Source of the DNA: Gemmatales bacterium
GTDB taxonomy: Bacteria; Planctomycetota; Planctomycetia; Gemmatales; HRBIN36
NCBI GenBank assembly: GCA_025060195.1
Contig: JANXCQ010000005.1
Location: 52,671-116,670, forward strand
Reading direction: 5' to 3'
Length of the DNA: 64,000 nucleotides
The notes under the pieces are model-generated. The model was not told where the DNA came from. It saw only the letters and a list, made by a program, of their open reading frames with translations, and searched no databases. Both the position numbers and the translations under genes were made by a program. Below are positions 1,985-37,232 of the stretch, one piece after another. The stretch's first letter is position 1; the number at the start of each line of letters is the position of its first letter.

Positions 1985-3650
1985 GAGGTGGTTGATAAGT
2001 TGGCGTTCGTCGCGATATTCATGATTTGTTCTCGGCTTGGCCAGAGGCAAAGGCGTAGGCGTTGTGCCCTTCGCTGTATTTAGGCCCAATTCTTGCGGTG
2101 TGAAGCTACAACGTCCCTAACGGTTCCTGGCGTCAGCCAGCTATTTGCCGCGTTTAGTTTCGAGGCAGGTTTGCGGAAGAGCGCAGACTGCAAGAGCCGC
2201 AGCCGCGAATCCTGTTATGCCTATTGATATGCTCTGGGGAATCCCTCATTCCTGCAGGCATCGCTAGGACTGGGCGCCTACGTCCCAGGTCGAGCCGGCG
2301 CGCGGATGTGGCCATCATGGAGTCTTTGCTTATGCTCGACCTCGTGGCCTAACGAGCGATGGAGCTATCCGTGGGTTCGGGGTCGCGTGGGACGACGCTG
2401 GCTGGTAGGAATGTTAAGAGGCATGACGCGGAGGACTGTAAGTTACCGGCAGCGGTTCGCTCTGCGACGGCTAACCTGATACGGTCGGCATATACGGCCC
2501 GCAAAATATCGCTGACTTGAACCGGGCTACCCGGCGACTGACCCGCGCTTTCCGATGATTATTCGGGGTGGCCGCGGTTGTACTCGCACCGGGCTTACTT
2601 TTGTTTCTTGCAAAAGCAGAAAGTTCATTACCCGAGCACAAGGGCAACGGTTGCCGTTCCATGCGTGGTAAAGTTGGTTGCTCAAGTCGCTATAACATCA
2701 TGCAGCCCCTTAGCGGGCTGATATCATTGGTCAGTGGCTTCGAGCGGCAGTTGAGCTAACCGGCTTGGCTTCAAGGAAAGTGGTTCGTTGATTCGTAACC
2801 GACCGTCGTCCCGGCTTTGAGCTATAACGAAGCGCGGCGCGGCAAGCAGTTTGACTAGGTGCGCGTTGCTCTGCATGGTGGGCGATGGAACTCGGTTCTT
2901 GTTGGCGAAACGACTGCAGGGCGTCTTATACCGCTCGTTGCCGCTCCCCGGGGCAGTGGCAGGTAGGTGCTATTTCGCGACAGTAAGCGGAATTTTTAGT
3001 GCGCCTAATTTGCGGCTTACATTATTAGAGTCTATGGAGATAAGCTGTTATTCAGCGATGCGCCAATTATCATGGTCCGCCGGATTCGTGATTATCAGTT
3101 GCGGTGCTCGTGGGAGCATCGCCGCCATAAGACGCGCCACACGCAGCCCGTTACTGATGCATGATCTGCTTGTTGGCCGCTGCAATTATCCCAGGGTAAA
3201 CGAGGGGAAGCGAATGCGTATCGAGACACGGAAAGTAGTTTAGCATTGAAGCCTGTTGACCCAGCAACTGAGCGCGAAGCCCATCGGGAGGACTGACCCG
3301 CTCTCGCAGTTCGAGAAATCCCAGCGGCTATCGCAGGTGCCATGTCGAGATTGCTGTTTCTCGGTGGATCATTTTCTCTATCGATTTTCTCTAGTGGCGG
3401 ATGCCTTGATAACGGCATAGCCGCACAAAATACGATCGCTAGGAATCATCCATTACCCGTTACGTATCGCTAAGTAACCGCGCCACAGCGTCGAGCTGAC
3501 TTGATTGAGTTACTCCATGCCTAACTTCCGGGCCGAACGCGGCTTCTGGTTCGGTGCTAGATTGATCTTGCCTTAGCTCGGCCTGCTTTAGTAAACTCTT
3601 TTTGGATGTGGTACACTGCCTGCCGAGCGGAATAGTTGAGAGGAATGAAT
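1985..3650. other. Long stretch with no supportable gene
   Basis: About 1.6 kb between the kinase gene and the DUF1549 gene. The open frames here are short, begin with rare starts, lack ribosome-binding sites and resemble no family I know. I find no tRNA, hairpin terminator or repeat. It may be decayed sequence or a long regulatory region. Confidence 0.5.
3609..3617 (+). promoter_or_regulatory. Possible extended -10 promoter
   Basis: TGGTACACT fits an extended -10 (TGnTATAAT-like) about 34 bases before the DUF1549 start. No good -35 is visible. A very similar TGGTATACT precedes purQ at 61909. Confidence 0.3.
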
Positions 3651-6035
3651 ATGTGGAAACGGTGGAATGGCACCTGGGTGGGAATGGCTCTCGTTTTGGG
3701 CTTGTTCGTTCAGTGGACAGATAGAGGCCTAATTTCGAGCCAGGCCTCAGAAAAACTGCAATCGCCGCGGAACGCTCCCAGTTTTAACTGGGACGTGCGC
3801 CCTATTCTGTCGAATCGCTGTTTCAAGTGCCATGGTCCCGATTTACAGAAGGGCGACCTTGACCTTCATAATCGCGATAAAGCCCTTCGCGGAGGTAAAT
3901 CAGGTCAACCCGCGATTGTCCCAGGCAAGAGCGATGCCAGTGAACTGATCCGCCGTGTCATCTCGTCCGACAAATCGTACCGCATGCCGCGCGGCGCCGA
4001 TCCGCTGCCTGAACATGAAATCGCCATTTTGCGTGCCTGGATTGATGCCGGGGCGGTTTATGAAGAACACTGGGCGTTCGTGCCGCCGAGACGACCGCCG
4101 CTACCCCCAGTGCGCAATCCTGATTGGGTACGCAATCCCATTGATCAACTCGTGCTCGCGCGGATGGAACAAGTCGGACTATCACCGTCGCCGCCGGCGG
4201 ACAAAGCAGTCCTGGCGCGCCGCGTCGCGCTCGACCTCACGGGGTTGCCTCCAACGCTCGAAGAACTTGACGCTTTCTTGAGCGACCATCGCCCCGATGC
4301 TTATGAACGTTATGTGGAACGTCTCTTGGCCAGTCCGCATTATGGGGAGCATCAGGCGCGTTATTGGCTCGATTTGGCTCGCTACGCTGACACCAACGGC
4401 TACGAGGCTGACTACCGACGTTCTATCTGGCCCTATCGCGATTGGGTCATTGATGCGTTTAACCGCAACCTGCCTTTTGATCAGTTCACCCTTGAGCAGC
4501 TAGCCGGCGACCTGCTACCCAACGCCACGTTGCAACAGCGGATCGCTACGGGTTTTCATCGGAACACTCTTGTCAACACCGAAGGCGGTACAGACGACGA
4601 AGAATTCCGCGTCGCGGCTGTCGTGGATCGTGTCAACACTACTATGACCGTATGGATGGGCCTAACGTTCGGTTGCGCTCAGTGTCATAACCATAAGTAC
4701 GATCCATTTACCACGCGGGAATATTATCAGATGTTTGCTTTCTTCAATAACACCGCTGACGGGGGGCGCAGTAATGATCCGCAGTTGACCTTCTGGCCCG
4801 AACCGGTCGCGCGCGAGCGGGAAGCTATTTTAGGACGTTTATTACCCCAGCTGGCCCAACTCGCGCACCCTTGGCCATTGGTGGCCGCGGCTCGCCTGAA
4901 ACCGGTTCTCCGCGCTACAGAAGCGGACCGCAAGAAACTCGCCTCGCTGCAGCCGGCGGTCACCCTCGTCATGCAGGAGTTACCTCAGCCGCGCGAAACC
5001 CACATCCTGATTCGCGGCGAGTTGCGTAACCGCGGGGAAAAAGTCGAACCTGCCACTCCGGCGAAACTTCATCCATTTCCCGCTGATGCTCCGCGCAATC
5101 GCCTGGGATTGGCGCGCTGGCTCGTAGATCGTCGTAATCCCCTCACGGCGCGCGTCATCATGAATCGCGTCTGGGGCCAGTATTGGGGCCGTCCTCTCGT
5201 CGAAACCAGCAGCGATTTCGGCTATCAGGGCGACCCTCCGATTTATCAGGAGCTGCTCGATTGGCTCGCCGTCGAGTTTATGGACAGTGGCTGGAATCTC
5301 AAGCACATGCACAAGCTCATCGTCACCTCGAACACGTATCGTCAATCGTCGCGCCTGACACCGTTCTTGAAAGAGCGAGATCCCGAAAACCGTTACTTCG
5401 CCCGCGGTCCGCGTTTCCGCATGGATGCTGAGATGCTTCGCGATAACGCACTGGCCATCAGCGGATTGCTGGTGCGTAAGATCGGCGGGCCTAGTGTCTT
5501 TCCCTACCAACCCGAGGGGATTTGGTTCAACCCATATAGCTCCGACCGCTGGGTAATGAGCACGGGGGGCGATCAGTATCGGCGGGGACTTTACACCTTT
5601 TGGCGTCGCACCGCCCACTATCCTAGCTTTGCCATGTTCGACGCGCCCAGTCGCGAGGTCTGCTGCGACAAACGTCCCCGCACCAACACGCCGCTACAAG
5701 CCTTGGTCACGCTCAACGATCCCGCATTCTTCCACGCGGCCATCGCCCTGGGCCTACGCCTCACTACAGAATGTTCCGGGACGCCCCAGGAGCGCGCTAC
5801 CTACGGTTTCCGCCTTTGCGTAGCTCGCCAGCCCAGCCCGGAAGAAATCCAACCGCTCGTGGCACTCTATCACGCCAGCCGCGAAAAATACCAGCGGCAA
5901 CCCGAAGCAGCCCGGAAGTTAGTCGAAGGCCCGGAGATCAAAACCACCCCGCCTGCCGACGTCGTCGAGTGGGCCGCTTGGACAGTCGTCGCCAACGTCC
6001 TGCTCAACCTCGACGAAACGCTGTGTAAACCCTGA
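3651..6035 (+). CDS. Planctomycete cytochrome C / DUF1549 / DUF1553 protein
   Basis: Exported multidomain protein of the planctomycete PSCyt1-PSCyt2-PSD1 type. A signal-like hydrophobic segment ([11 protein letters not shown]) leads into a planctomycete cytochrome C domain with a haem-binding CFKCH at residues 57-61. DUF1549 follows ([24 protein letters not shown]) with a second CxxCH in [13 protein letters not shown], then DUF1553 ([34 protein letters not shown]). I chose ATG 3651 because GAGAGG lies seven bases upstream; the frame is open back to a TTG at 3636. The DUF1501 gene follows 36 bases later, the usual pairing. The biochemical role of the pair is unknown; oxidation or degradation of complex substrates is only a suggestion. 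Confidence 0.93.
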
Positions 6036-6071
6036 TTCCCACCCTGCCAACTTTGCAACGGAGGCCCGACC

Positions 6072-7448
6072 ATGCTCACCTTAGGCCAACAATGGCAGCG
6101 AACGTGCCAGGGGTTAAATCGCCGCGAAGTCCTGCAAATCGGTTTCGCCACTGGCTTAGGCTTGACGTTGGCCGACTGGCTGCGGGTCAAGGCTCACGCG
6201 GCGGACTCGGCAGCGCGGGCACAGTCGGTCATTTTCCTCTGGTTATGGGGCGGCCCGAGCCATTTGGATACTTTCGACCCAAAGCCGAAAGCTCCCTTCG
6301 AGTATCGCGGGCCGTTTGCAGCTATACCCACTACGATCTCCGGAGTGTATTTCAGCGAACTGTTCCCGCAGTTAGCCCAGCGTGCTCGCCGGCTGGCCAT
6401 CATTCGTTCGCTGCACACGCGTTCCAATGACCATGGCGTCGCCGGTACCACCGGACTGACCGGGAGCATGAGCGGCTCGGTAAATCTGGGCGGCCAAGTT
6501 GCCGAGGGGAACCTCCGTCCGGCTCTCGGGGCGGTGGTGGCCCGCGCTACAGGCCGAACCGCAGGACGATTACCTCCCTACTTGATCATCGGCGGACGCC
6601 TGCATCAAGGAAAGAAACCCGTCGTCGGCGAAGGCGGCGGCACTCTTGGTCAACGTTACGACCCGTTCCGCATTGAATACAAGTTTCCCAGCGGCGTGCG
6701 CATCGAGGCCCTGGAGTTAGCACCCGACATTTCCCCCGAACGCTTACAGCATCGCCGACAACTTCTCACCCACCTCGACCAGGCTCGCCGCTGGCTCGAT
6801 ACCTCCTCTTCGGCCGCCTCGCTTGATGCATATCAACGCCAAGCCTTAGACATGCTCCTTTGCCCGAACGCATTGCGCTTGTTTGACCTGAGCCAGGAGC
6901 CACCCGCCCTTCGTCAACGTTACGGCCTGACGCGCTTCGGACAATCCTGCCTCCTGGCACGCCGACTCGTCGAAAAGAATGTTCCTTTCGTGCAGGTGAA
7001 CTGGAGTAACCATGTCGAATCGGAGGAAGATGCAGGCGATGGCGGATGGGACATGCACTATCGCAACTTTGAAATTATGCAAAACCGCCACGCACCCATT
7101 TTAGACCAAGCCCTCAGCGCTCTATTAGACGACTTAGAACAACGCGGCTTATTAGAACGGACTCTCGTGGTTGCGGTGGGCGAATTCGGCCGGACTCCGA
7201 AGATTAATGACAAAGTTGGCCGCGATCACTGGGAACATTGTTACTGTGCCCTGCTGGCCGGAGGCGGAATTCGCCCTGGTGTCGTTTACGGCGAAAGCGA
7301 CGATCGCGGGGAACGCCCCCGCGTCTATCCATGCACTCCCGCAGATTTACACGCCACCATCCTGGCCGCCCTCGGTATCTCGCCGGAACAACTACGCAAT
7401 CTCAACCTGCCCACCGATGGCCGCGTCCTCGAGCCTTTATTAGCCTAA
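6072..7448 (+). CDS. DUF1501 domain protein, Tat-exported
   Basis: 458 residues. The N-terminus carries a Tat-type twin arginine (NRREVLQIG) and a hydrophobic stretch, so export in folded form is likely. The body is DUF1501, a sulfatase/alkaline-phosphatase-like fold: LWLWGGPSHLDTFDPKP near residue 55, SNDHG near 120, an EFGRTPKIND motif near 370 and DHWEHC just after, all probable metal or active-site positions in this family. It lies 36 bases behind the DUF1549/DUF1553 gene and is almost certainly co-transcribed. Start ATG 6072 with GGAGG upstream. The substrate is unknown. Confidence 0.93.
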   Translation: MLTLGQQWQRTCQGLNRREVLQIGFATGLGLTLADWLRVKAHAADSAARAQSVIFLWLWGGPSHLDTFDPKPKAPFEYRGPFAAIPTTISGVYFSELFPQLAQRARRLAIIRSLHTRSNDHGVAGTTGLTGSMSGSVNLGGQVAEGNLRPALGAVVARATGRTAGRLPPYLIIGGRLHQGKKPVVGEGGGTLGQRYDPFRIEYKFPSGVRIEALELAPDISPERLQHRRQLLTHLDQARRWLDTSSSAASLDAYQRQALDMLLCPNALRLFDLSQEPPALRQRYGLTRFGQSCLLARRLVEKNVPFVQVNWSNHVESEEDAGDGGWDMHYRNFEIMQNRHAPILDQALSALLDDLEQRGLLERTLVVAVGEFGRTPKINDKVGRDHWEHCYCALLAGGGIRPGVVYGESDDRGERPRVYPCTPADLHATILAALGISPEQLRNLNLPTDGRVLEPLLA

Positions 7449-21187: not shown

Positions 21188-21207
21188 TGCGTAGTGTATG
21201 AGAAGCC

Positions 21208-21257
21208 AGGGGATGGAGTCCCCCTCATAACCGCCCCACTCGGGGCTGATGACTCCT
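21208..21257 (+). ncRNA. Fluoride riboswitch aptamer (crcB motif)
   Basis: The fold matches the crcB fluoride aptamer. P1 pairs AGGGG (21208-21212) with CCCCT (21221-21225). The hairpin loop GGAGT (21215-21219) pairs with ACTCC (21252-21256) to form the pseudoknot. The second stem pairs GCCCC (21233-21237) with GGGGC (21242-21246), and the conserved CTGATG follows at 21246-21251, as in the Thermotoga and Pseudomonas examples. The GAUG and AACCGCC elements are also present. Fluoride binding should stabilise this fold and favour read-through. Confidence 0.88.
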
Positions 21258-21324
21258 GCCGCGATGCTGTACGGCAGGAGTCGCGTGGTGAAAAAGGTTG
21301 GCCCTGCCGTACGGCAGGGTTTTT
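21252..21324 (+). terminator. Riboswitch expression platform with intrinsic terminator
   Basis: Three exclusive pairings use one repeated word. Anti-aptamer hairpin: ACTCCTGCCG (21252-21261) with CGGCAGGAGT (21272-21281). Antiterminator: GTACGGCAGG (21269-21278) with CCTGCCGTAC (21303-21312). Terminator: CCCTGCC (21302-21308) with GGCAGGG (21313-21319), then five Ts to 21324. If the aptamer holds ACTCC, the strand at 21269-21278 is free to block the terminator, so fluoride should switch the gene on. Confidence 0.85.
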
Positions 21325-35518: not shown

Positions 35519-36652
35519 ATGGGTTGGTCACTGCGGATTGGACGCCTCTTTGGCATTGATGTCTACGCGCACTTCACCTTCCTTTTGTTCCTGATCTGGA
35601 TTGGCGTGTCGTATTACCTGGTGTATCAGGATTGGCTCAAAGCCGCGATGGGCATGCTGATGATTGTGATGTTGTTCACGATCGTAGTGATGCACGAATT
35701 GGGCCACGCCTTGACGGCCCGGCGTTTTGGCATTCGCACGCGGCACATCACGCTGTTACCCATCGGCGGAGTGGCGTGGTTAGAACGTATCCCGGAGAAA
35801 CCATGGCAGGAACTGGCCATTGCCATTGCGGGACCGGCTGTCAATATCGTGTTGGCTGGGATCCTCTATGCTGTTTTTACCTCATTCTTGGGAACTCCCG
35901 AAGCGTTGCTCAACTTGTCCGCTGAGATCACGGAGCAAGTAGCGGCCAGCACCGCCGAGCAAATGGTGCGTACGCTGTTTTGGGTAAACGTGATGCTGGT
36001 GGCGTTCAACTTGCTCCCCGCATTTCCCATGGACGGAGGACGGGTACTGCGAGCGCTTCTGGCCATGCACATGGAATACGCCCAAGCCACCAACATCGCC
36101 GCGAGCATCGGCCAGTTGATGGCTATCCTCTTCGGATTCCTGGGTTTAGTATTCAACCCAATGTTGCTGTTCATCGCACTCTTTGTCTGGATCGGCGCCC
36201 AACAGGAAGCGGCGTTTGCCCAGCAGAAGGCGGCACTGTGGGGCATTCCCGTGCGCGATACCATGATCACCAATTTCACCGCATTATCGCCGCAGCACAC
36301 TTTGGCCGAAGCAGCGCACCTGATTCTTCAGGGTTATCAGATTGATTTCCCCGTGGTGGAAGATGGCCGGTTAGTCGGGGTGCTTCCTGGTAAAGACATT
36401 ATCGCCGGCTTAGCGCAACTGGGACCGCAGGCTCTGGTGCGCGAGGTGATGCGCCAGGACTGCCTGACGGCCAATCCCTACGAAATGGTCGAAACCGTTT
36501 TGCTGCGGATGGACCAGAATCATTGTCCCGTCGTGCCCGTTATCGTTAATGGCCAGATCATCGGTGTGCTGACCCGCGACAACATTGCCGAATATATTCT
36601 CATTCGCCGCGCACTCGAGGAAGCGCGCCGACGCCTTCAGGGCTATCTTTAA
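35519..36652 (+). CDS. Site-2 protease family M50 metalloprotease with two CBS domains
   Basis: 377 residues; an intramembrane zinc protease. HELGH at 59-63 supplies the two His ligands and catalytic Glu, and the third ligand Asp172 is in LPAFPMDGGRVLRAL. Four to six membrane segments surround them. Residues about 235-360 are two CBS repeats (QIDFPVVEDGRLVGVL and HCPVVPVIVNGQIIGVL), which usually sense adenine nucleotides and control activity. The arrangement is like SpoIVFB/Rip3 with CBS tail. The substrate is unknown, often an anti-sigma factor or membrane regulator. The start ATG 35519 follows a CAGGAGACAGGC site. The candidate selenoprotein follows 28 bases later. Confidence 0.95.
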   Translation: MGWSLRIGRLFGIDVYAHFTFLLFLIWIGVSYYLVYQDWLKAAMGMLMIVMLFTIVVMHELGHALTARRFGIRTRHITLLPIGGVAWLERIPEKPWQELAIAIAGPAVNIVLAGILYAVFTSFLGTPEALLNLSAEITEQVAASTAEQMVRTLFWVNVMLVAFNLLPAFPMDGGRVLRALLAMHMEYAQATNIAASIGQLMAILFGFLGLVFNPMLLFIALFVWIGAQQEAAFAQQKAALWGIPVRDTMITNFTALSPQHTLAEAAHLILQGYQIDFPVVEDGRLVGVLPGKDIIAGLAQLGPQALVREVMRQDCLTANPYEMVETVLLRMDQNHCPVVPVIVNGQIIGVLTRDNIAEYILIRRALEEARRRLQGYL

Positions 36653-36680: not shown

Positions 36681-37232
36681 ATGCTGACAAAAAATCCCTT
36701 CTGCCTGGCAGGAGTGCTGGTTGCTTTGTGGGCCAATACCACCATAACCCTGGCCCAGGAGAAGCGTGCTGCACCCGAGGCCGTGCAATGCGGTAAGATC
36801 ACCAAGCTTTCCCGCATCGGGGACATTTACATCGGGGGCCAACCTACAAAAGAGGACTTTGCCGAGTTGAAAAAGCTCGGAATCAAAACGATCCTTAACT
36901 TGCGCCAGGCCGGGGAGACCGCACTTGACGAGCAAGCGTTGGCCGCGGAGCAAGGCATTCGCTATGTCCACTTGCCTTTCCAGAAGCCGGACGAACTGAC
37001 CGATGCCGTTTTCGACCGGGTGCGCCAACTTTTACGCGACAATCAAAGTCGGCCCATTTTTGTGCACTGAGGGTCGGCCAATCGTGCGGCAGCGGTCTGG
37101 CTGCCTTATCGCGTTCTCGATGAAGGCGTGTCCTACGACCAGGCGGTGAAAGAGGCCCGTGAGATGGGCCTCCGCTCTGCAGAATTGGAGCAGCGCGCCC
37201 GCGACTATATCGCCCGCCAGCTTAAAAAGTAA
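36681..37232 (+). CDS. Candidate selenoprotein: exported DSP-type tyrosine phosphatase-like (DUF442) with Sec at the catalytic position
   Basis: 183 codons if TGA at 37068-37070 (codon 130) is read as selenocysteine; otherwise it stops at 129 residues. A signal peptide (LAGVLVALWANTTITLAQ) starts at ATG 36681, with GGGAG eight bases ahead. The body follows the DUF442/beta-lactamase-hydrolase-like phosphatase fold: KLSRIGDIYIGGQPTKEDF, GIKTILNLR, YVHLPFQKP. Then comes PIFVH-TGA-GSANRAAAVW, which matches the family signature HCxxxNR with the nucleophilic Cys replaced by TGA. The frame stays open for 53 further family-like codons to TAA 37230-37232. A SECIS-like hairpin follows the TGA. It is probably cotranscribed with the M50 protease. 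A TGC-to-TGA nonsense change is the alternative. Confidence 0.8.
37083..37113 (+). promoter_or_regulatory. Bacterial SECIS-like hairpin behind the in-frame UGA
   Basis: GGCAGC (37088-37093) pairs with GCUGCC (37100-37105) around the six-base loop GGUCUG (37094-37099). A lower stem pairs CGUG (37083-37086) with CGCG (37110-37113). The loop begins 23 bases after the UGA. The GGUCU loop is the same as in E. coli fdhF, and spacing is within the range known for bacterial SECIS elements. Confidence 0.75.

What the first reader, a model, noticed from the sequence alone, without database searches (positions are those of the whole stretch)
36681..37232. Candidate selenoprotein: UGA in place of the catalytic cysteine of a DSP/DUF442-type phosphatase
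Seen: an exported phosphatase-like frame reads PIFVH-TGA-GSANRAAAVW and stays open for 53 codons after TGA to TAA at 37230. Established: this family has a catalytic HC(x)5R-type signature, and the TGA lies precisely at the Cys. A hairpin with six G/C-rich pairs and a GGUCUG apical loop starts 17 bases after the UGA, fitting known bacterial SECIS geometry. Inference: selenocysteine is the nucleophile (HU-GSANR). I know of no described selenoprotein of this phosphatase type.
Basis: partly seen in the sequence, partly recalled or inferred. Interest (0 to 1): 0.95.

Follow-up and report, generated by a model that had tools for sequence, protein, structure and literature searches.

The report
Selenocysteine-bearing tyrosine-phosphatase-fold enzyme
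A Gemmatales bacterium's gene for a predicted exported tyrosine-phosphatase-fold enzyme has a UGA stop codon exactly where 81 of 81 related proteins have the catalytic cysteine; because the genome carries the genes of the selenocysteine machinery and a fitting predicted RNA hairpin follows the UGA, the enzyme is likely a selenoprotein of a kind absent from the current inventory, although a plain nonsense mutation is not excluded.

Summary
In detail: frame 36681-37232 has one in-frame TGA (37068-37070) at the catalytic Cys of a C(X)5R, PTP-fold protein, then 53 open codons to TAA; the hairpin GGCAGC[GGUCUG]GCUGCC starts 17 nt after the UGA. The genome has tRNA-Sec, selA, selB and selD, and selD itself has an in-frame TGA. 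The hairpin meets published bacterial SECIS criteria, which 54 of 1682 TGA codons in the window do. No family of this type is in a 2026 inventory of 119 prokaryotic selenoprotein families/subfamilies. Against: TGA is in one genome only; the other homologues are Cys; the sister species (94% DNA identity) has TGT with the identical hairpin; 14 of 44 Cys homologues meet the loose hairpin criteria, and one has the same GGUCUG loop at the same spacing just short of the energy limit, because the loop arises from conserved Ala-Val-Trp codons; a competing fold is more stable. Best reading: a recent Cys/Sec exchange (0.56). Main rival: a nonsense change or assembly error. Reads and 75Se labelling would decide.

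The parts
36681..37232 (+). Candidate selenoprotein gene: 183 residues with codon 130 read as Sec; PTP/DSP-fold enzyme
   Evidence: PTP-NADK PF22741 45.8 bits over cut-off 27; AlphaFold2 pLDDT 91.9; Foldseek: TpbA first
36681..36755 (+). Predicted N-terminal signal peptide (hydrophobic helix, ends near ...TLAQ)
   Evidence: read from the sequence; helix 7-24 at low confidence; no signal-peptide program was run
37068..37070 (+). In-frame TGA at the catalytic Cys of the C(X)5R loop, likely Sec codon
   Evidence: Cys at this column in 81 of 81 other homologous proteins
37088..37105 (+). Candidate SECIS hairpin GGCAGC-GGUCUG-GCUGCC
   Evidence: criteria from PMC13188914
37071..37232 (+). 53 codons after the UGA plus TAA; 0 amino-acid differences to the sister species, 7 third-position differences
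35519..36652 (+). Upstream neighbour: M50 peptidase (site-2-protease-like) gene with CBS domains, 28 bp before the candidate, same strand

Best explanation
The gene likely encodes a selenoprotein: an enzyme of the tyrosine-phosphatase fold, predicted to be exported, in which UGA codon 130 would be read as selenocysteine at the place of the catalytic cysteine. Shown: the UGA position, the sel gene set including a selD with its own in-frame UGA, and a downstream stretch that can form the hairpin. Inferred: SelB with Sec-tRNA binds the hairpin at 37088-37105 as the ribosome reaches the UGA and inserts Sec; without it, a 129-residue fragment lacking the nucleophile is made. Sec130 then sits in the P-loop (HU-GSANR) as the nucleophile and forms a covalent selenium intermediate. 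I commit to thiol or sulfur-transfer type chemistry rather than plain phosphate-ester hydrolysis as the more likely reason for Sec, because Cys37 is the only other Cys of the presumed mature protein and could close a selenenylsulfide with Sec130; this last step is untested. The sister species carries Cys (TGT) on the same hairpin, so the pair would show a very recent Cys/Sec exchange, in one direction or the other.
For: Position: TGA exactly at the catalytic Cys; 81 of 81 other aligned homologues have Cys130 and Arg135; 1 of 64 single-step nonsense changes. Machinery: tRNA-Sec 74.4 bits, anticodon TCA, selA 569.5 and selB 393.4 bits side by side, selD 382.7 bits with in-frame TGA. tRNA-Sec above 70 bits and TGA-selD also in the sister and in three of five other genomes of the family. 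Hairpin: meets the loop, stem, spacing, G and energy criteria of PMC13188914; the 28-nt hairpin stretch alone folds better than shuffles (z -2.34, 6 of 200 as good); loop GGU is shared with the five selD hairpins of the family, AGGUGCU or AGGUACU; a GGU loop within the criteria follows 5 of 1682 TGA codons. Reading continues: 0 of 53 residues differ from the sister after the UGA, 13 of 129 before it.
Against: Only one genome has TGA: none in any other homologue place found among 102 order, 392 phylum, 397 class and 397 second-class genomes (the draws overlap). The sister has TGT with the same hairpin and 89 identical bases after the codon; that identity is not special, as flanking genes differ at only 9-12% of fourfold sites and have identical runs up to 184 bases. 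The loose hairpin criteria are met by 14 of 44 Cys homologues, and the Cys homologue L042 has the same GGUCUG loop at the same 23-nt spacing at -7.3 kcal/mol, just short of the -7.5 limit: the loop comes from conserved Ala-Val-Trp codons. Under the same scoring only 3 of 5 selD hairpins reach -7.5, so the score is a poor judge either way. The 48-nt stretch from the UGA prefers another fold, -18.9 against -15.8 kcal/mol with the SECIS stem enforced, and is no better than shuffles (z -1.03). The PTP reaction needs no redox step. selD is the only other likely Sec gene found; the formate dehydrogenase hit over cut-off has no in-frame stop.
Confidence: 0.56

Rival explanations
1. A recent nonsense mutation (or an allele of this population) knocked out the gene; the hairpin is a by-product of GC-rich codons for AAAVWLP.
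For: TGA in this genome only; the sister has TGT on identical downstream DNA; hairpins arise in Cys homologues too (14 of 44, loose criteria; L042 with the same GGUCUG loop) and in 10.3% of synonymous resamplings. The gene is rare in the order: 2 of 102 genomes match at E<=1e-20.
Against: It must hit 1 of 64 nonsense changes, the one at the nucleophile, in a genome with the Sec machinery and with a GGU-loop hairpin at a fitting distance (1.9% to 7.6% by resampling, depending on the energy limit). The 53 codons after the TGA show no amino-acid change, though a very recent mutation would also leave them intact.
Confidence: 0.31
2. Assembly or base-call error in the contig: the true codon is TGT or TGC.
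For: One-base difference from the sister; the codon is the last difference of a divergent tract before 89 identical bases, where mixed strains could mislead an assembler. The sister's own contig name gives a coverage of only 4.76, so an error on that side is possible too.
Against: The two neighbouring genes are intact and alignable to the sister. The truncated 129-residue protein P0003 is listed on 2 contigs, but whether these are independent is unknown.
Confidence: 0.09
3. The UGA is passed at low level by a near-cognate tRNA or ends a deliberately short form; no selenium is involved.
For: The rest of the frame is intact.
Against: A product without Cys or Sec at 130 lacks the nucleophile; the genome holds a tRNA-Sec with anticodon TCA.
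Confidence: 0.04

Closest known systems
TpbA, protein tyrosine phosphatase of Pseudomonas aeruginosa (PDB 4r0s, 4r0t)
   Same: Same fold, first in the Foldseek list (E 1.1e-8) and in the profile search (E 1.1e-22); its HC...NR loop aligns with HU-GSANR; also has an N-terminal leader
   Different: Catalytic Cys, not Sec; 22-23% identity in the fold alignment
DUF442 / TIGR01244 sulfur transferase domain of Blh
   Same: PTP fold; weak profile match over residues 48-168; the Blh DUF442 domain transfers sulfane sulfur in vitro (PMC5823870, passages seen)
   Different: Below the NCBIfam cut-offs (44.5 against 85.85 bits); no dioxygenase domain; no Sec in the passages seen
Selenophosphate synthetase SelD of the same genome
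   Same: In-frame TGA at the active site, hairpin with a GGU loop downstream
   Different: A long-known selenoprotein family; TGA also in four of the six other family genomes searched; loop 31-33 nt from the UGA instead of 23
Rhodanese-like selenoproteins forms 1-5 and arsenate reductase selenoproteins (PMC13188914, Table 1)
   Same: Sec at a reactive-Cys site in sulfur or oxyanion chemistry (reading of the names)
   Different: Listed under other domains (for instance PF00581, TIGR00014, NF041106), not the PTP families matched here

Membership tests
Bacterial selenoprotein | In-frame UGA at a site where homologues have Cys | tested here: met
   (81 of 81 Cys)
Bacterial selenoprotein | Genome encodes selA, selB, selC, selD | tested here: met
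Bacterial selenoprotein | SECIS hairpin: loop 3-9 nt, stem 4-16 bp, G in first two loop positions, 16-37 nt from UGA, energy <= -7.5 kcal/mol | tested here: met
   loop 6, stem 6, G first, 23 nt, -11.3 (criteria); weakly discriminating: 14 of 44 Cys homologues pass too and a competing fold is more stable
Bacterial selenoprotein | UGA and hairpin conserved in more than one lineage | tested here: not met
   TGA only in the window's genome; so the gene is reported as a candidate, not filed as an established selenoprotein
Bacterial selenoprotein | Sec present in the protein (75Se or mass spectrometry) | not testable with these tools
   experiment needed
PTP / dual-specificity phosphatase superfamily | Fold with strand, P-loop C(X)5R, helix | tested here: met
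   residue 130 follows strand 126-129 and precedes helix 134-147; Foldseek E 1.1e-8 to TpbA; PF22741, PF22785, PF22784, PF03162, PF04273 and PF13350 over cut-off, PF00782 DSPc below it; the Cys form was the query
PTP / dual-specificity phosphatase superfamily | Phosphatase activity | not testable with these tools
   no assay
TIGR01244 / Blh sulfur transferase | Score over the curated cut-off | tested here: not met
   44.5 of 85.85 bits and 45.5 of 625 bits

The most novel reading that the evidence does not exclude
The first selenoprotein of the tyrosine-phosphatase fold, with selenocysteine as the P-loop nucleophile, seen within one genus at the moment of Cys/Sec exchange: the sister species holds Cys on the same SECIS-like hairpin.
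Probability: 0.48. Interest if true: 0.85.

Novelty: new variant of a known kind. Interest (0 to 1): 0.6.

Why it matters
If true, Sec would extend to the nucleophile of the C(X)5R phosphatase fold, which Table 1 of PMC13188914 (119 prokaryotic families/subfamilies) does not list, and would raise the question whether this exported branch does redox or sulfur chemistry. The sister pair (TGA against TGT on the same hairpin) would be a natural test of how a selenoprotein is born or lost, since the hairpin would exist apart from the UGA.

Tried and rejected
Rejected as support: the 89-base identity after the codon between the two species. It looked like SECIS constraint, but one search shows the flanking genes are about as similar (16 of 182 and 36 of 294 fourfold sites differ; identical runs up to 184 bases); what stands out is the divergent tract before the codon (23 of 56 fourfold sites).

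Rejected as support: hairpin stability alone. The 48-nt and 58-nt folds are no better than shuffles (z -1.03 and -0.61) and prefer another structure. The hairpin is part of the minimum-energy fold when the first 8, 12 or 15 nt from the U of the UGA are left out, about the stretch that a ribosome covers (recalled). In 6 window genes, 18 of 2535 sense-codon positions are followed by a hairpin of -11.3 or better and 9 by one with GGU in the loop; in the family's own Cys genes 2 of 30 reach -11.3 and 0 of 30 have GGU at -8 (narrower pattern), with L042 at -7.3 as the nearest.

Tried for a second Sec lineage: the C-terminal 53 residues in the protein database gave nothing; four genome scans gave no other TGA. 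The protein database cannot show Sec forms directly, since gene callers cut at UGA; the only cut form in it was the window's own P0003. Rfam at gathering scores gave only a fluoride riboswitch and a tRNA in the window. Which species took in the divergent tract could not be told: window and sister are about equally close to outgroups. C37 is kept in 8 of 8 nearest orthologues but in 39 of 81 overall, so the Cys37-Sec130 pair is only a suggestion. PADLOC: no match. Literature listings: searches (10 papers; 6; 3; 0; 10 listed of 503; 10; 0; 1) showed no title about a Sec phosphatase; PMC10298544, a selenoprotein review that holds 'tyrosine phosphatase' 7 times, was not opened.

Full report
What is there. 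The frame 36681-37232 (+) encodes 183 residues if its one in-frame TGA, 37068-37070, is read as a residue. Read with Cys there, the protein matches six PTP-type Pfam families over their cut-offs, best PTP-NADK PF22741 at 45.8 bits; DSPc is below its cut-off. An AlphaFold2 model from 28 aligned homologues has mean pLDDT 91.9, with low confidence in about the first 28 residues. Residue 130 follows strand 126-129 and precedes helix 134-147, the place of the P-loop; the nearest solved folds are TpbA and the DUF442 protein 3gxh, and the profile alignment sets this site on the HC of TpbA. In an alignment of the 81 other homologues found (the query and its own truncated copy P0003 left out), Cys130 and Arg135 are present in 81 of 81. 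So the TGA replaces the nucleophile.

The machinery. The window's genome (3.94 Mb, 93.4% complete) holds tRNA-Sec (74.4 bits; ARAGORN anticodon tca), selA (569.5 bits) and selB (393.4 bits) side by side on contig C60, and selD (382.7 bits) with one in-frame TGA that falls in ...ASCAG-UGA-AGKLP. Of six other genomes of the family, the sister G098 and G096, G097, G099 have tRNA-Sec above 70 bits and a TGA-selD. G100 and G101 have best tRNA-Sec hits of 53.2 bits, over the Rfam cut-off of 47 but in the range of tRNA-Ser (a 48.9-bit hit of the window's genome is tRNA-Ser), and no selD over cut-off. The formate dehydrogenase hit over cut-off in the window's genome has no in-frame stop. selD is the only other likely Sec gene found; the search for others was not exhaustive.

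The hairpin. GGCAGC-GGUCUG-GCUGCC starts 17 nt and its loop 23 nt after the UGA (-11.3 kcal/mol). A 2026 review gives the bacterial model as loop 3-9 nt, stem 4-16 bp, G in the first two loop positions, 16-37 nt spacing, energy up to -7.5 (PMC13188914, passage and legend seen). All are met. Controls: 54 of 1682 TGA codons in the window's six frames meet them, 5 of 1682 with GGU at the loop start. Synonymous resampling with codon usage of six window genes: 10.3% reach -11.3 with G early in the loop, 1.9% with GGU; 7.6% have GGU at -8. In Cys homologues other than the sister whose motif matched the script's pattern (44 distinct sequences; fetched loci that did not match were not counted), 14 pass the loose criteria, 7 with G[GU], 0 with GGU. 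The near miss matters: L042 has the same GGUCUG loop at the same 23-nt spacing with a 5-bp stem at -7.3, since the loop is read from the codons of the conserved Ala-Val-Trp. The GGU choice was made after seeing this loop, but the selD hairpins of five genomes share it; of those five, three reach -7.5 under the same perfect-stem scoring (-8.5, -8.9, -10.4) and two do not (-4.7, -3.7). The full stretch from the UGA has a better competing fold (-18.9 against -15.8 kcal/mol for 48 nt; -20.4 against -18.2 for 58 nt).

The relatives. One close relative is held: Gemmatales MAG SKYG129 (L018; the same gene place as L026 in G098, same genus), 93% identical in protein and 94% over 701 aligned bases, with TGT at the codon and the same hairpin. 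Beyond it, listed homologues are at 76% identity and less and have Cys. In whole genomes read through stops, matches were found in 2 of 102 (order, E<=1e-20), 35 of 392 (phylum, 1e-18), 44 of 397 (class, 1e-20) and 27 of 397 (class of G443, 1e-18) genomes; the only place with a stop inside is the window's own (the draws overlap). The gene is rare in its order, and Sec, if real, is confined to one known species.

The neighbourhood of the change. Between the two species fourfold sites differ at 16 of 182 in the upstream M50 gene, 36 of 294 in the downstream gene, 23 of 56 in the candidate before the TGA and 3 of 31 after it; amino-acid differences are 13 of 129 before and 0 of 53 after. The raised divergence starts near 36791 and the codon is its last difference before 89 identical bases. 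One species may have taken in a tract by recombination that ended near the codon (inference); outgroup distances do not say which.

How it would work. SelB and Sec-tRNA would read the UGA at the hairpin; the product would be exported by its N-terminal hydrophobic segment and use Sec130 as nucleophile. Phosphatase or sulfur transferase is open: TIGR01244 and Blh profiles match weakly and under cut-off, and the DUF442 domain of Blh transfers sulfur although it shares the PTP fold (PMC5823870, passages). Cys37 is the only other Cys after the presumed leader and is kept in the eight nearest orthologues (39 of 81 overall), which suggests but does not show a selenenylsulfide pair.

Novelty. Table 1 of PMC13188914, read (119 families/subfamilies), lists no PTP, DSP, DUF442 or PF22741-type family, and a word search found no 'phosphatase' in its main text. 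Searches showed no title on a Sec phosphatase; most subscription papers and preprints are not in that library. An earlier survey reports Cys-to-Sec replacement as the general trend, with few Sec-to-Cys changes (PMC1794560, passages), so a Sec form within a Cys family is plausible.

Verdict. The facts fit a candidate selenoprotein of a new family, caught next to a Cys sister. They do not exclude a nonsense change or an error in one assembly. Confidence 0.56 for selenocysteine.

Noticed in passing
21200-21265 (+): Fluoride riboswitch (Rfam RF01734, 55.5 bits, gathering score 34).
   Followed up: no
36791-37070: Tract of raised divergence to the sister species (23 of 56 fourfold sites in the gene before the TGA against 9-12% in flanking genes), ending at the TGA codon; possible recombination tract.
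   Followed up: partly
3636-7445 (+): Two long frames in the same phase separated by a TGA at 6033 (799 and 470 open codons); the sequences look like two adjacent ordinary genes of planctomycete DUF1553/DUF1501 type (names recalled), not a recoding site; no hairpin within the SECIS criteria.
   Followed up: partly
L027 and L067-L070: selD of five genomes of this family has an in-frame TGA and a downstream hairpin whose loop holds AGGUGCU or AGGUACU, a yardstick for the SECIS of this clade.
   Followed up: partly
G591:C17:4075-4645: Homologue split in two pieces (query residues 32-125 and 87-181), possibly a frameshift in that genome.
   Followed up: no
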